This document shows, one piece after another, positions 320-44,826 of a stretch of DNA of 44,826 nt. This stretch comes from an uncultured Clostridia bacterium (GTDB taxonomy: Bacteria; Bacillota; Clostridia; Oscillospirales; Ruminococcaceae), in the NCBI GenBank assembly GCA_947589035.1, contig CANPYZ010000018.1:1-44826 (forward strand), read 5' to 3'. A model generated the notes under the pieces. The model had not been told where the DNA came from. It ran no database searches and was given only the letters and a program-made list of their open reading frames with translations. The translations under genes and the position numbers were made by a program. Within the stretch, counting starts at the first letter, position 1. Each line of letters begins with the position of its first letter.

Positions 320-1644
320 ATACAGATTCTCACATAATTTGCCTTGATGTTACCAGTTTTATTTCAGCAGCAAGACGAGAGAAAAAAGCTCTTTCTGATG
401 TTCCTAATATGATTGTCAATGCTCTGCAAAAAGAATTGGTAGACATGTATTCTTACCTGACACCGGATATGTCGCTGACAGAATGCCTGATTCGATGTGT
501 AGAAGGCACTAAGAACGAACCCGGCAGAAAATTCATCTTCATTATTGATGAATGGGACTGTATTTTCCGTGTTTATAAAGACAATCAGGAATCGCAAAAA
601 AATTATTTAGATTTTCTCCGTGATTTGCTGAAAAATCAGCCTTTTGTGGCGTTAGTTTACATGACAGGCATTTTGCCAATCAAGAAATACGGCGAACATT
701 CAGCACTAAATATGTTCAAAGAATATTCCATGACTAATCAGAAACGGCTTGCTGAATTTACGGGCTTTACAGAATCAGAAGTCAAAGAACTTTGTGAAAA
801 ATATCAGATGTCTTTCGAGGAAACAAAACAATGGTATGACGGCTATAATGTCAACGGAATTTCTATTTATAACCCGAAATCCGTTGTTGAAGCACTAACT
901 GAACGTGTTTTTGACAGTTACTGGACACAAACAGAAACTTATGAAGCATTAAAATTTTATTTAATGCGGAACGAAAACGGTTTGCGTGACAAAATTATCC
1001 GCATGATTGGCGGAGAGAAAATTTCCGTCAACACAAGAAAATTTCAGAATGATATGTGTACTTTCGAAAGTGCCGATGATATTTTGACGTTACTAATTCA
1101 TTTAGGGTATCTCACTTACGATTTTGATACGAAAACAGCATGGATTCCGAACACGGAAGTTCGTCAGGAATTTATCAGTTCCATTCAGGACAACGGTTTT
1201 GAACACGTGGTCAAAGCCATTGAACAATCGGATAAATTATTAAAATATACGCTTGAACAGAATGCCGAAAAAGTTGCTGAAATTCTTAGCGAGGTGCATT
1301 CTGAAAATACGTCTTTAATTCAGTATAATGATGAAAATTCTCTTGCCTGCGTTCTGACATTAGCCTATTATTCCGCACAGGATAGCTATGCCATTTATAG
1401 AGAATTGCACGGCGGGGAAGGTCTTGCCGACATTGTGTTAATTCCCCGAACGAAAAATCCAAATCCTGCCATGATTATAGAACTCAAATGGAATCAGAAC
1501 GCCGGCATTGCCCTGAATCAAATCAAAGAAAAAAATTATATCAAGTCACTTAAAGATTACCACGGGAAAGTGCTTTTCGTGGGGATTAACTACGACAAGA
1601 AAACAAAACAACACGACTGCCAATTTGAAATGACAGAAGTCTGA
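310..1644 (+). pseudogene. AAA-ATPase-like / PD-(D/E)XK nuclease protein, 5' truncated
   Basis: This belongs to the family with an N-terminal AAA-ATPase-like domain and a C-terminal PDDEXK nuclease domain, common in gut Firmicutes and Bacteroidetes and of poorly known role. Visible are a Walker B-like FIFIIDEWD, the family segment MTGILPIKKYGEHSALNMF, the WYDGYN block, and a C-terminal nuclease core with GGEGLADIVLIP and MIIELKWN. The normal N-terminus, with the Walker A motif in a RPRRFGKS context, is missing: sequence resembling the family begins only around base 325, directly after the transposase end. The open frame extends to an ATG at 271 inside the transposase remnant, but that ATG and the one at 310 lack a ribosome site. 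Probably a dead gene fragment. Confidence 0.75.
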
Positions 1645-1737: not shown

Positions 1738-1926
1738 AACAGAACCCGACACGCCTCTAAACTATGCGTACCACGTCGGGTCATTCAATTATATTCAGGT
1801 GATAAAATAGGTTATGAAAATAAGGCTAAAGAGAATGAAAAGAAGGCACGGGATAATGCACTAAAGAGTCAGGCTTACACAGCAATTCAAGACTTGATTA
1901 GTAATACCGTTATTGAAAACTTATAA
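1738..1926 (+). other. Short transcription unit with 5' hairpin and possible ORF remnant
   Basis: The predicted transcript opens with a hairpin at 1744-1781: ACCCGAC pairs with GTCGGGT, and an inner ACGC pairs with GCGT, with a bulge between. An AGGTGA element follows at about 1797-1802, but no good start codon sits at the usual spacing. The ATG at 1814 gives only 16 basic residues. Another frame, open to the TAA at 1924-1926, reads as a Lys/Glu-rich helical tail ending in NTVIENL and has no convincing start. The unit ends exactly at the hairpin at 1926-1947. It may be a small RNA, a leader left behind by a lost gene, or the tail of a decayed gene. I do not recognise it. Confidence 0.4.
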
Positions 1927-1981
1927 AAAGTTATAAAATAAACTTTTATGTTCCATTCCTTGTTCAATGTGTCCGCTTTTG
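1907..1981 (+). repeat. Dispersed repeat, left copy (matches 44752-44826)
   Basis: These 75 bases match 44752-44826 in the same orientation with three differences (1913 T/C, 1933 A/G, 1939 T/C). Weaker similarity extends left to about 1898. The right copy is cut by the window end, so the true repeat may be much longer and may include the whole structured region up to about 2216. Differences at 1933 and 1939 are paired positions of one hairpin (A-T here, G-C in the other copy). Confidence 0.9.
1926..1947. terminator. A/T-rich hairpin, possible bidirectional terminator
   Basis: AAAAGTTA at 1926-1933 pairs with TAACTTTT across 1939-1947 (one base bulged), around loop TAAAA. A short T run flanks it on both strands. 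It lies at the meeting point of the plus-strand unit and the minus-strand RNA. The A-T pair at 1933/1939 is G-C in the right-hand copy, which supports pairing in RNA. Confidence 0.5.
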
Positions 1982-2182
1982 AAATTGCAAGCAATTTCTA
2001 CTCACGTTTGGTATAACACTCCGAAGGCGTAAATTCCCGACTAACGTATCGGTACACATCTGCATTTCCTTAACTATGGAATGATGCAGATTTTACGCTT
2101 AAGATTTTACATACAATACGATTCGATTGTAAAACCCGCTATCTTAACTTGTCAAGTTGCATGGTACTTGGTTTTCGTACCA
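1926..2182 (-). ncRNA. Candidate structured non-coding RNA, about 255 nt
   Basis: A minus-strand transcript from the promoter at 2188-2216 would start near 2182 and end at the hairpin at 1926-1947. No sizeable reading frame is present, but many stems are visible (plus-strand coordinates): GGTAC/GTACC at about 2163-2181; AACTTG/CAAGTT around 2146-2158; TTTTAC..CAAT with ATTG.TAAAA at about 2104-2135; ATCTGCAT/ATGCAGAT with an inner TTCC/GGAA at about 2058-2091; a long-range GCGTAAA/TTTACGC enclosing that hairpin (about 2027 with 2098); GAAATTGC/GCAATTTC at 1981-1998; and the terminal hairpin. It does not show recognisable RNase P, tmRNA, SRP or 6S landmarks. The 3' 75 nt recur at 44752-44826. 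Family unknown to me. Confidence 0.6.
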
Positions 2183-2187
2183 ATTTT

Positions 2188-2216
2188 ATGATACCACAAA
2201 ACTCCTTCTTTGTCAA
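2188..2216 (-). promoter_or_regulatory. Sigma-A promoter, minus strand
   Basis: On the minus strand: TTGACA (2216-2211), a 17-base spacer, then TATCAT (2193-2188). It drives the structured RNA candidate leftward. Confidence 0.7.
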
Positions 2217-2247
2217 GTGTTTTTTAGATTTTTATTGAGTTGTATAT

Positions 2248-2279
2248 TTTTATCAATTTAAACGTTTAAAATGATAAAA
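2248..2279. promoter_or_regulatory. 32-bp near-perfect palindrome, operator-like
   Basis: A 32-bp inverted repeat centred between 2263 and 2264 has only one mismatched pair (2256/2271). Its core is TTTAAACGTTTAAA at 2257-2270. The AAACGTTT centre is reminiscent of LacI-family operators, but no regulator gene is nearby. A second, perfect inverted repeat follows: AACATTTT (2296-2303), spacer ATA, AAAATGTT (2307-2314). Confidence 0.45.
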
Positions 2280-2351
2280 GTCAATACTTTATGATAACAT
2301 TTTATAAAAATGTTTTAACTGTTAAATCCCCCAGGATCACGAAAGAAAGCC

Positions 2352-2672
2352 ATGGCAGTAGGTGCTTATGACGAAAAGACAGGAAAAATAGCAGCTGCTT
2401 TTGCTGGTGATATTCCAAAGACGATACATCCTGATTTATTAAAGCTTGCTAAACAAATTGGAGGAGTAGGATCGCTTGGAGTTACTGGCAGAAATATAGT
2501 AGGAGTATGTGCTGAATTTCATGTGATTAATGATATGCTTCTATCCGGAAGCAAATTAGAGGACATAAGATTGACAAGAGCAATTCGTCCCAGAACAGGA
2601 AAATTTATGCCTTACTGTGATAACTGTCATGCAATGTTTTCTGAAATAATAGAAAGGAGCAAATCATCATGA
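2352..2672 (+). CDS. Orphan polymorphic-toxin C-terminal domain, YwqJ-like deaminase
   Basis: A protein of 106 residues with the layout of a toxin-type nucleic acid deaminase. A CAE motif (Cys as zinc ligand, Glu as proton shuttle) sits in GVCAEFHVINDMLLSG, and a second zinc pair CxxC in PYCDNC. YwqJ-type deaminases form the C-terminal toxic tip of large secreted proteins. The frame stays open upstream to about 2319 and reads NPPGSRKKA before the Met, as expected for a tip detached from a larger protein. No good Shine-Dalgarno site precedes the ATG. The stop overlaps the next gene's start by ATGA, the usual toxin-immunity coupling. Probably a displaced toxin cassette, perhaps silent or used as a recombination donor. 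Confidence 0.65.
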   Translation: MAVGAYDEKTGKIAAAFAGDIPKTIHPDLLKLAKQIGGVGSLGVTGRNIVGVCAEFHVINDMLLSGSKLEDIRLTRAIRPRTGKFMPYCDNCHAMFSEIIERSKSS

Positions 2673-43137: not shown

Positions 43138-43857
43138 TTATTCATCACGATGAAAATATTCATGAATGATTTTTTTAATTAGTTCCTGTGCATGTTCTTT
43201 TCCGGATAATTTAACAAGTTGATGATAATCTTCCATTTCATTTCCGGTAAACACTAAAGGAATAATTTTTTCAAATTTGCCTGCAACATGTTCATAATTT
43301 TCAGGATATGCCCAAAAACACCGCAAACAAAAACTGCTGTCTTTTTTGCTCCAGTTGTCGCAATGTTCACAAGTCCATGATTTCGCACGGTTTGCGGACG
43401 GACTTAATAACATATAATCATCAATGTTTTTTTCGTCACATTCTCCGCCGATTTCATAAGGAATCCGGTGATCTACTTGTAAAACAGATTCGTCCATTGA
43501 TTCAAGATATACAAAACATTTTGAACCATATTTTTCTACTAATGCTTTTTTTAATGCTTTAGAAATCACCGTACGCCCAGATGATTTTGACAAAGAATTT
43601 TTCATTTCATCAGGGTTTCCAAATCGATAAGCAGCAATGCTTTTTCCGTTTGCGTCCGTGACACGATACGTCACCACAGGAATCCCGTATTCTCTCACAT
43701 CCCGAATTGCTCTCGGTGGGTGATGATAGCCATATATATTTTCTAATTCTTCAGAAGTAATAAATCCATGTTTCAAAATATGCTGTATCACCGTACGGGG
43801 ACGTTTAGCCGTTACTGATTGTAATAAGGCAAGAAATTCTTCAGAATAGTTGTTCAT
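43138..43857 (-). CDS. HNH restriction endonuclease
   Basis: 239 residues. The N-terminal 80 residues look like a winged-helix region (VIQHILKHGFITSEELENIYG). The HNH motif follows as VLQVDHRIPYEIGGECDEKNIDDYMLL, given by landmarks VDHRIPYEIGG and SANRAKSW. Then comes a zinc-ribbon-like CEHC...CLRC pair before FWAYPENYEHVAG. It overlaps the methyltransferase gene by ATGA, the usual arrangement for a type II system. The target sequence cannot be told. Confidence 0.88.
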   Translation of the reverse strand: MNNYSEEFLALLQSVTAKRPRTVIQHILKHGFITSEELENIYGYHHPPRAIRDVREYGIPVVTYRVTDANGKSIAAYRFGNPDEMKNSLSKSSGRTVISKALKKALVEKYGSKCFVYLESMDESVLQVDHRIPYEIGGECDEKNIDDYMLLSPSANRAKSWTCEHCDNWSKKDSSFCLRCFWAYPENYEHVAGKFEKIIPLVFTGNEMEDYHQLVKLSGKEHAQELIKKIIHEYFHRDE

Positions 43858-44744
43858 GCTGTCACTTCCGTTAATGGCAATTGTTTCAAAATAAGTGATT
43901 GGCTAATATACAGCGATTCAAAAGTCACTGATTTTTTTCCTAATAAAGTTGATTGACTTGACAATCCAGCATTTAAAAGAATTTTTTTACAGCCTAAACT
44001 TTCCGGTAAATCTTTACCATATTCTTTTTCGCCGCAAATGCCGTCATAACTAATTAAATAATCAATATGTTTACGATTCAATAATTGAATGGACTCTGCA
44101 AATTCATCAAATGAAACGCCTGAATAATATCGGCTGTCTTTGCCATTCGTTACTCCCTGATATGGGGGGTCTATGTAAACTAAATCTCCTTGATGCGCCA
44201 TTTCAAAAATTTCATGATAATCTAAAGAGAAAAAAGCCGTTTTTCCTTTGAGTAAATGAGAAATGGCACAAAGATTTTTTTCTAAAGTATCTGGATTTGT
44301 TCCATGTCTCCGTTTATCGGGAGACTGATTAAAATTCCCGTTTTCAGCGTATCTTACTGCTCCTTTTACGCATCTTGCAATCAAATAAAGCAAATTAGCA
44401 GCATTTTTTTGTCCATGATTAAATTTTTCCCGAATCATATAAAAATGTTCTGCATGATGTTCCCCATAATCAAATTGTTCATTCCAAATTTTCCGATATT
44501 CGTCCGCAAGCTGTGATGGGTGATGAACGACTTGTGTTAAAATTTCCACTAAAGGCTGATTCAAATCATTGATAACATAAAAATTTGCCCTATGTTCCAT
44601 TGCTGTTGCTATTGTAATCGCCGCCATACCGGAAAATGGTTCAATCAGTCTGTTAAAGTGTTTTGGCATATATTGCAAAATTTGGGGAGCGAGTTTTCTT
44701 TTCGAACCTTGATATTGAACAATGTGTGGAGTTTTGCCATTCAT
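43854..44744 (-). CDS. DNA adenine N6-methyltransferase, D12 class (Dam-like)
   Basis: 296 residues. SAM-binding motif in RLIEPFSGMAAITIA and the catalytic DPPY in LVYIDPPYQG; the N-terminal YQGSKRKLAPQIL is typical of the D12 class. It protects host DNA from the adjacent HNH enzyme. ATG at 44744 has no Shine-Dalgarno sequence; the repeat at 44752-44826 ends 7 bases upstream of it. Poorer in the CCGGA signature than core genes, suggesting transfer. Confidence 0.92.
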   Translation of the reverse strand: MNGKTPHIVQYQGSKRKLAPQILQYMPKHFNRLIEPFSGMAAITIATAMEHRANFYVINDLNQPLVEILTQVVHHPSQLADEYRKIWNEQFDYGEHHAEHFYMIREKFNHGQKNAANLLYLIARCVKGAVRYAENGNFNQSPDKRRHGTNPDTLEKNLCAISHLLKGKTAFFSLDYHEIFEMAHQGDLVYIDPPYQGVTNGKDSRYYSGVSFDEFAESIQLLNRKHIDYLISYDGICGEKEYGKDLPESLGCKKILLNAGLSSQSTLLGKKSVTFESLYISQSLILKQLPLTEVTA

Positions 44745-44751
44745 TAGTGTG

Positions 44752-44826
44752 CCGTTACTGAAAACTTATAAAAAGTTGTAAAACAAACTTTTATGTTCCA
44801 TTCCTTGTTCAATGTGTCCGCTTTTG
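44752..44826 (+). repeat. Dispersed repeat, right copy (matches 1907-1981), cut by window end
   Basis: Same orientation as the left copy. On the minus strand it would be the 3' end of a second copy of the structured RNA, reading directly into the methyltransferase gene. The hairpin at about 44771-44792 is kept, with G-C replacing the A-T pair of the left copy. Confidence 0.88.

What the first reader, a model, noticed from the sequence alone, without database searches (positions are those of the whole stretch)
1907..2216. Promoter-driven, highly structured RNA candidate with a second copy and a compensatory base-pair change
A consensus minus-strand promoter (2216-2188) faces about 255 nt with no convincing ORF but at least six stems and one long-range pairing, ending in a hairpin. 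The 3' 75 nt recur at 44752-44826. Two of only three differences (1933 A to G, 1939 T to C) are partners in one stem, so the pair is preserved. It shows none of the landmarks of RNase P, tmRNA, SRP or 6S RNA that I can check by eye. Dispersed copies next to accessory genes suggest a mobile or defence-linked RNA.
Basis: partly seen in the sequence, partly recalled or inferred. Interest (0 to 1): 0.8.

Follow-up and report, generated by a model that had tools for sequence, protein, structure and literature searches.

The report
Transposon encoding only a guide RNA
The structured RNA is most of a small jumping element that appears to make only a guide RNA for a DNA-cutting enzyme (TnpB) encoded elsewhere, and its front part is an RNA domain, absent from the Rfam library, that also precedes guide RNAs of other DNA-cutting systems, including a CRISPR repeat.

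Summary
Rfam RAGATH-18 (RF03064) matches 1956-2027 (-) at 73.6 bits (cut-off 44.9). RAGATH-18 is the scaffold core of the guide RNA (reRNA) of IS607 TnpB nucleases. Genome copies fix the unit as 1907-2330 (-), a 424-nt TnpB-less IS607-type element; four other full copies are 96.9-98.6% identical to it, with unrelated flanks. It holds a left end, promoter, 5' RNA domain, RAGATH-18 scaffold and a right end at GG. Flanking DNA would supply the guide. The "second copy" belongs to the TnpB-linked lineage and is cut by the contig end.

The unexpected part is the 5' domain (2091-2164, -). It matches no Rfam family and covaries in 30 distinct sequences. A pattern scan of 84,980 species genomes found it 33 times; 30 are followed by a guide scaffold: 2 IS607/RAGATH-18, 20 from two IS605-like TnpB lineages, and 8 solitary type I-C CRISPR repeats in one Ruminococcus MAG with I-C cas genes. 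It stands, behind a promoter, where related elements have tnpB, and was not found beside the TnpB genes examined.

Best reading: mobile guide-only units that use nucleases in trans. The domain's role is unproven.

The parts
1907..2330 (-). TnpB-less IS607-type element (left end at 2330, right end at 1907), 424 nt
   Evidence: Five full copies in the own genome (C18, C64, C58, C2, C21); the other four are 96.9-98.6% identical to the window copy, similarity stopping at the same two ends (within 2 nt) with unrelated flanks. A related element in G431 (L174) has an uninterrupted site in the own genome (L074).
2267..2330 (-). left end (approximate extent)
   Evidence: 60 nt (about 2267-2326) at 91.7% to the stretch upstream of a TnpB gene in L247; weaker to L251 and L252.
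2188..2216 (-). sigma-70-like promoter TTGACA-17-TATCAT, TG before the -10
   Evidence: in 30 module occurrences with enough upstream DNA, 25 have a best score of 10/12 or more, against 4.1% of shuffles. A similar stretch (87% over 47 nt) lies before an ordinary ORF in L240.
2162..2182 (-). 5' hairpin UGGUAC...GUACCA at the inferred transcript start
   Evidence: folds; start site inferred from the promoter.
2091..2164 (-). conserved 5' RNA domain ('module'), absent from Rfam
   Evidence: model R1, 97 bits, the window copy being one of the model's own 11 sequences; covariation on 30 distinct sequences, 0 of 500 shuffles reach the score; no Rfam match in it.
1956..2027 (-). RAGATH-18 (RF03064), core of the IS607 TnpB guide-RNA scaffold
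   Evidence: 73.6 bits, gathering 44.9, full model 1-71.
1907..2064 (-). predicted mature reRNA scaffold
   Evidence: inference from the 37-nt 5' and 64-nt 3' flanks of the ISFba1 reRNA (PMC11061315); here the 3' flank is 49 nt.
1926..1946 (-). right-end hairpin with the preserved pair 1939/1933 (approximate extent)
   Evidence: 29 right ends: G-C 18, A-U 7, G-U 4; neighbouring pair broken in 6.
1907..1908 (-). GG at the right end (IS607-type core)
   Evidence: copies stop here; right ends listed end in CGG.
1887..1906 (-). predicted guide: first 20 nt of flanking DNA (register may shift by a nucleotide)
   Evidence: inference from guide = right flank in TnpB systems (PMC11061315, PMC10711439).
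44740..44826 (-). right end of a TnpB-lineage element, cut off by the contig end
   Evidence: 92% over 87 nt to the last base; ends CAGTAACGG.

Best explanation
The feature is a non-autonomous, TnpB-less IS607-type transposon (1907-2330, minus strand) whose only evident product is a guide-RNA precursor. Shown by sequence: both ends, mobility, a promoter-like site, a conserved 5' RNA domain, and a RAGATH-18 scaffold scoring as high as TnpB-linked copies. Inferred: RNA polymerase starts near 2182, reads out of the right end, and the flanking DNA becomes the guide. An IS607 TnpB made from another copy binds this reRNA in trans and cuts matching empty sites, which favours keeping the small element, while its own locus is spared because the insertion splits the target from its adjacent motif. 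The 5' domain (2091-2164) occupies the place of tnpB in several unrelated element lineages and is most likely a leader that makes stand-alone guide precursors work: by 5' protection, by letting polymerase read through the structured right end, or by binding a shared factor. Which of these is not shown.
For: RAGATH-18 at 73.6 bits; the five full TnpB-less copies score 67.2-73.6 bits and copies beside TnpB matches 62.4-74.3. Five full copies, same ends, different flanks. Uninterrupted site for a related copy: L174 aligns to L074 in two blocks that meet with a 2-nt overlap (734-735) around 401 inserted nt. Own genome has 17 TnpB zinc-ribbon (PF07282) matches, six in open frames of 399 aa or more, so an effector is plausible; intact TnpB ORFs with right ends 86-90% like the window's exist in other genomes (L243, L247, L251). 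The scaffold matches right ends beside TnpB genes (84-90%) and the left end matches L247. The module is matched in none of the TnpB loci by 12 representative units (best five rows per query shown). RAGATH-18 RNAs are IS607 TnpB guide RNAs (PMC11061315). Module: 30 of 33 occurrences precede a guide scaffold; no TnpB gene in 31 module loci at E 1e-5; no module in 42 TnpB loci apart from one 22.9-bit match inside a tnpB frame. Three shorter TnpB-less variants in the own genome (L006, L009, L071) have the reported TnpB motif AGGAG at their left junction.
Against: No transcript or cleavage data. Only 2 of the 5 full copies (C2, C58) show a reported IS607 TnpB motif (AGGAG or GAGGG) at the left junction; the window copy does not (motifs). 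In the own genome the TnpB frames beside the most similar right ends run into contig ends, so an intact cognate TnpB was not read there. No IS607 TnpA was recognised: 5 resolvase-domain matches, of which I read the ORFs of 4 and identified none as IS607 TnpA. Other TnpB-less variants have weaker scaffolds (C33 60.8, C4 55.0 bits), so scaffolds do decay. One degenerate module copy in the own genome (C29, 54.4 bits) has no scaffold behind it. The fold of 1907-2050 alone is not unusual (z -1.23).
Confidence: 0.68

Rival explanations
1. Inert deletion derivative: the element is carried along by TnpA in trans; promoter and scaffold are leftovers and the RNA does nothing.
For: A PATE-like IS605 remnant keeping 28 nt of left end, 58 nt of tnpB and the right end is described in Halanaerobium (PMC7290912, passages). 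TnpB-less derivatives without the promoter-module block exist in the own genome (C4:21487, L006), with a lower RAGATH-18 score (55.0). In one lineage C unit (L162) the promoter region resembles the stretch between left end and tnpB of TnpB elements (L234, L229; 82-84% over 85-90 nt), as a simple deletion would leave it.
Against: A covarying RNA domain sits in tnpB's place in several lineages; the five full copies keep RAGATH-18 scores of 67.2-73.6.
Confidence: 0.17
2. Decoy RNA: the unit makes non-productive complexes that occupy TnpB (or Cascade for the CRISPR-repeat version), like RNA anti-CRISPRs, protecting a mobile element.
For: Eight module units carry a type I-C repeat behind the module, with a promoter-like site wherever it could be scored (7 of 8), the layout of solitary repeat units (PMC10651486, passages), in a genome with type I-C cas genes and an array; several lie in phage-type genes (by eye).
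Against: Scaffolds look complete rather than truncated; several D units interrupt the phage genes they lie in, so they do not obviously serve that phage. No inhibition data.
Confidence: 0.1
3. The module is simply the 5' leader of ancestral tnpA/tnpB elements, retained by chance in deletion derivatives.
For: It lies just behind a promoter-like site near the left end; in L162 that promoter region is shared with TnpB elements.
Against: The module itself is absent from 42 TnpB loci (120,175 nt; one 22.9-bit match inside the 544-1731 tnpB frame of L242); in 12 units tested no listed match to a TnpB locus reaches the module; it also precedes CRISPR repeats.
Confidence: 0.05

Closest known systems
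RAGATH-18 RNA / IS607 TnpB reRNA (Rfam RF03064; ISFba1, PMC11061315)
   Same: Full match to the 71-nt family; position at the right end; guide expected from the flank.
   Different: No tnpB upstream; instead a promoter-like site and a 74-nt RNA domain not in Rfam; 3' flank 49 nt against 64.
PATE-like remnants of IS200/IS605 (PMC7290912, passages)
   Same: Ends-only element without transposase, keeping the right end, presumably moved in trans; the described one keeps a tnpB tail, as two lineage C relatives here do.
   Different: IS607 right end with GG; carries a promoter-like site and a covarying RNA domain; the passages read mention no promoter or guide role.
Solitary CRISPR repeat units / RNA anti-CRISPRs (PMC10651486, passages)
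   Same: One host-type repeat behind a promoter, outside the array, in phage-type genes (the type D relatives only).
   Different: A structured 74-nt domain lies between promoter and repeat, and that domain is shared with TnpB guide RNAs; inhibition untested.
IStrons and TnpB retention elements (recalled; the papers of 2023 and 2024 that I looked for are not held)
   Same: Guide RNA promotes retention of the element (recalled).
   Different: No tnpB in cis; no group I intron match at gathering threshold in the window.

Membership tests
RAGATH-18 RNA (RF03064) | covariance-model score above the curated cut-off | tested here: met
   73.6 bits against 44.9, positions 1-71 of 71
IS607 TnpB reRNA | scaffold at the right end, directly followed by variable flanking DNA | tested here: met
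   five full copies end at GG with five different flanks
IS607 TnpB reRNA | tnpB directly upstream in the same element | tested here: not met
   no tnpB in the 424-nt element; TnpB genes lie elsewhere in the genome
IS607 TnpB reRNA | bound by TnpB and directs DNA cutting | not testable with these tools
   needs small-RNA sequencing and cleavage assays
IS607-type transposable element | insertion by recombination between matching dinucleotides | tested here: met
   L174 against the uninterrupted gene in L074: blocks meet with a 2-nt overlap; GG at right ends. Tested on a related copy, not on the window copy
IS607-type transposable element | serine-recombinase TnpA | tested here: inconclusive
   none in the element; 5 resolvase-domain matches in the genome, ORFs of 4 read, none identified as IS607 TnpA
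IS607-type transposable element | reported TnpB motif (AGGAG or GAGGG) at the left junction | tested here: not met
   window copy lacks it; 2 of 5 full copies have it. The motif of this TnpB lineage is unknown
RNase P, tmRNA, SRP, 6S or any other Rfam family (whole window) | Rfam match at gathering threshold | tested here: not met
   only RAGATH-18 and a marginal abiF match in the window
RNA anti-CRISPR (type D relatives) | solitary repeat with promoter outside an array | tested here: met
   8 of 33 module matches; promoter-like site scored in 7 of these 8, 11 of 12 each, the eighth had too little upstream DNA in that locus. One unit has two repeats
RNA anti-CRISPR (type D relatives) | inhibits the cognate Cas proteins | not testable with these tools
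   experiment needed

The most novel reading that the evidence does not exclude
The 5' domain is a general leader of selfish or stand-alone guide RNAs: one covarying RNA domain, behind a promoter, placed in front of guide scaffolds for at least three different RNA-guided nuclease systems (IS607 TnpB, two IS605-like TnpB lineages, and type I-C CRISPR-Cas), each time with flanking DNA in the guide position. In the CRISPR version, a single repeat inserted into a phage gene would turn that gene's own sequence into the spacer, protect its own locus by displacing the motif, and let host Cascade-Cas3 destroy copies lacking the unit: TnpB-style homing logic carried out by a host CRISPR system.
Probability: 0.3. 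Interest if true: 0.92.

Novelty: new variant of a known kind. Interest (0 to 1): 0.72.

Why it matters
TnpB guide RNAs are known to be made from the tnpB message itself (title of PMC10278001, search listing). Here the guide seems to have become a separate transposon with a promoter-like site of its own, and the same RNA domain is used with unrelated guide scaffolds. If the domain has a common function, it is a handle on how guide RNAs become independent of their nuclease, a step also taken by CRISPR arrays, and it gives a portable leader to test in guide-RNA expression. The type D units make a testable case of guide-only units exploiting a host CRISPR system.

Tried and rejected
Rejected: an RNA with no described family (RAGATH-18); a tRNA or tmRNA; fragments of a protein gene (no ORF of 80 aa or more; covariation); a Cas9 tracrRNA, considered because the module reads AAGTTAAGATA (own genome has only one HNH_4 match, below cut-off); a CRISPR leader (in the G431 array contig the only module match is the RAGATH-18-type element); a tnpB leader. 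My first wording, that promoter and module together are absent from TnpB elements, did not hold: a re-check showed that one lineage C unit (L162) shares its promoter region with TnpB elements, and that a promoter like the window's precedes an ordinary ORF in L240. Only the module is claimed as the shared new piece. This did not change my odds.

Led nowhere: the module against phages and plasmids (no match); viral contigs by pattern (0); order-wide search with model R1 (only the own genome among 394, but with strict filters and 12 scored candidates in each genome listed, so weak evidence); the B scaffold against plasmids and phages and the C scaffold against phages (no match). In one search four of my eight 'TnpB' queries were wrong ORFs (longest frame picked); redone. 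In one search one helix was one column off; redone. One search left about 40 nt before the module untested; closed. D-unit guides matched only their own loci in the fetched stretches, apart from one partial 23-nt match between two related loci. The deletion seen beside some D units was judged by eye from ORFs and not tested against intact relatives. Two partial module matches (G003:C133, G034:C48) were not classed.

Full report
What is there. The window is the whole of contig C18 of an incomplete 2.41-Mb, 72-contig genome. The promoter-like site, the absence of an ORF of 80 aa or more and the strong fold all check out. Rfam finds RAGATH-18 at 1956-2027 (-), 73.6 bits against a cut-off of 44.9, over the full model. 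RAGATH-18 RNAs lie next to IS607 TnpB genes and form the core of the reRNA that guides these nucleases (PMC11061315; I read the outline, parts 1 and 2 of 4 of the Results and the reRNA section).

True boundaries. Searching the own genome gave 42 matches. Five, the window copy included, are full copies; the other four are 96.9-98.6% identical to it; similarity starts at window 2330 (2 nt later in one copy) and stops at 1907, with unrelated flanks on both sides. The right end stops at GG. A related element in another genome (G431, L174) interrupts an aldo-keto reductase gene that is uninterrupted in the window's own genome (L074): the two halves align to positions that meet with a 2-nt overlap (734-735) around 401 extra nucleotides. 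This fits IS607 elements, which insert by recombination between matching dinucleotides (PMC10711439, section 25 read). So the RNA is the body of a small mobile element of 424 nt without tnpA or tnpB. Many other matches are right ends beside TnpB fragments, and many lie at contig ends, including the 'second copy' at 44740-44826, which ends at the last base of the contig.

The compensatory pair. The three differences between the two window copies are at 1913, 1933 and 1939. In 29 right ends the 1939/1933 pair is G-C in 18, A-U in 7 and G-U in 4, so it is paired in all; the neighbouring pair is broken in 6 of 29.

The unexpected 5' domain. The stretch 2091-2164 (-) recurs in same-genus genomes outside RAGATH-18 elements. 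No Rfam family matches it. A pattern made from its most constant bases was run over the genome-contig collection (84,980 species): 31 loci, 33 occurrences. By similarity of the following DNA to right ends beside TnpB genes, or by the CRISPR repeat, 30 of 33 were classed: 2 IS607/RAGATH-18 (type A), 12 IS605-like lineage B, 8 IS605-like lineage C, 8 type I-C CRISPR repeats (type D); 3 were not classed, two because the contig ends within 50 nt, one (L146) with 221 nt of unassigned sequence. The lineage B class includes three divergent members (L153, L161, L166) resting on 66-76 nt. Where enough upstream DNA was present (30 of 33), 25 have a promoter-like site of 10/12 or better; shuffles of the same stretches reach that in 4.1%. 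Against the rule: the own genome has one degenerate module copy (C29, L073, 54.4 bits) without a scaffold.

It is an RNA. On 30 distinct sequences (A3) the three-helix structure has 87.4% standard pairs, 40 cells with both sides changed and covariation score 0.257, reached by 0 of 500 shuffles; slid controls score 0.009-0.091. Two weaker measures are less clear-cut: the number of pairs with a change on both sides is reached by 11 of 500 shuffles and the number of further pair types by 26 of 500. The apical helix changes on both sides at five pairs; the middle helix hardly varies and so says little. The outer helix is uncertain: two alternatives have 70.8% and 68.0% of cells paired. The structure came partly from these sequences and they are related, so the controls lean in its favour, and the counts are sequences, not events. 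Single-sequence folds of three module stretches are not unusual (z -1.36 to -1.63).

It stands where tnpB should be. Lineage B scaffolds match the right ends of TnpB genes L248/L249, lineage C those of L244/L239, type A those of L251, L247, L021, L030 and others. Left ends of these units match upstream of TnpB genes too: B to L248/L249 (55-70 nt), C to L244 (43-76 nt) and to L234 and L229, A to L247, L251 and L252 (51-60 nt). For 12 representative units I then compared the 120 nt before the module and the module itself with 42 TnpB loci: no listed match reaches the module (best five per query shown); in one lineage C unit (L162) the match to L234 and L229 continues through the promoter region, so there the promoter may be the element's own tnpB promoter, and the window's promoter stretch resembles one before an ordinary ORF in L240. 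Two lineage C loci (L150, L155) keep the last 25-28 codons of tnpB right behind the module. With 24 ORFs overlapping PF07282 matches as queries, no TnpB gene was found in the 31 module loci (197,555 nt, E 1e-5) beyond those tails. The module model found nothing in 42 TnpB loci (120,175 nt) except one 22.9-bit match inside the tnpB frame (544-1731) of L242. All nine module-bearing genomes examined encode TnpB somewhere, and so does the window's genome.

Type D. All eight type D matches lie in one MAG, uncultured Ruminococcus Lapin-032 bin115 (CANQVA01, handle G431). It has Cas3, Cas5c, Cas8c, Cas7, Cas4, Cas1c and Cas2 (NCBIfam) and an array of 22 repeats. Most pairs of units share only the stretch from about the -35 box to the end of the repeat; L216 and L219, and the two units of L220, share more. 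One unit is followed by two repeats. Several lie in phage-type genes (portal, terminase, methylase, repressor; named by eye from translations). Neither the window's genome nor G432 has this repeat with up to 3 mismatches. One MAG is thin evidence, and MAG contigs can be chimaeric; the same MAG also carries a type A element (L215:7401-7474).

How it most likely works. Shown: element, ends, mobility, promoter-like site, RAGATH-18 scaffold, conserved RNA domain. Inferred: transcription through the right end, guide from the flank, TnpB supplied in trans, cutting of empty sites, and a leader role for the module. Against the trans-guide step: only 2 of 5 full copies have a published IS607 TnpB motif at the left junction, and the window copy has neither, though three shorter TnpB-less variants do; the cognate TnpB and TnpA could not be read in this genome because contigs break in these repeats, although intact TnpB ORFs with similar right ends exist in other genomes (L243, L247, L251).

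Literature. Seven searches of the held open-access library showed no description, in the listings and passages I read, of this module or of a promoter-driven TnpB-less guide element. The library lacks most subscription papers, and two likely relevant ones are not held, so absence from print is not established. PMC10651486, PMC11656645, PMC11870625, PMC7290912 and PMC12558985 were seen as passages only; PMC10711439 as passages and one section.

Verdict. The reported RNA is ordinary in its 3' half (known RAGATH-18 reRNA) and notable as a whole: a guide-only transposon with a 5' RNA domain, absent from Rfam, that is shared across guide systems.

Noticed in passing
window 1745-1781 (+): abiF RNA (RF03085) just over its cut-off (38 against 37 bits), downstream of a 457-aa ORF at 271-1644 that matches PDDEXK_9 and, just under cut-off, AAA-ATPase_like.
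   Followed up: no
window 2352-2672 (+): ORF with a weak YwqJ-deaminase match (24.4 bits, cut-off 25.9) starts 22 nt beyond the left end; the element may lie inside a polymorphic toxin gene. Flanks not joined.
   Followed up: no
window 43854-44744 (-): D12-class adenine DNA methyltransferase (Dam family) beside the truncated right copy, with a 239-aa ORF at 43138-43857 that matched no Pfam or NCBIfam family.
   Followed up: no
L221 (G431:C6), unit at L221:5921-5994: A type D unit followed by two repeats with a short spacer between them: a two-repeat mini-array placed in a repressor-type gene (by eye).
   Followed up: partly
L217, L218, L216 (G431): Phage-type genes on the two sides of type D units seem to lack intervening sequence, as if insertion came with a deletion on the promoter side, the side on which Cas3 would degrade (recalled).
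   Followed up: partly
L003 and L005 (own genome copies): One full copy lies between antitoxin-like and RelE-like ORFs, another next to a repressor-type ORF (named by eye).
   Followed up: partly
L074 (G000:C9:33500-36500) and L073 (G000:C29:10000-13000): Module-less promoter stretch (88% over 77 nt) upstream of the aldo-keto reductase gene, and a degenerate promoter-plus-module copy (54.4 bits) before a helicase-like ORF.
   Followed up: partly
L240 (G431:C38), 1396-1442 (-): A promoter stretch 87% like the window's over 47 nt precedes a 256-aa ORF that is not TnpB.
   Followed up: partly
phage records H1-H17: Stretches similar to the RAGATH-18 part in 17 phage records (Staphylococcus, Enterocloster, Butyrivibrio and unnamed phages), with no annotated feature under the match or no annotation in the record.
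   Followed up: no
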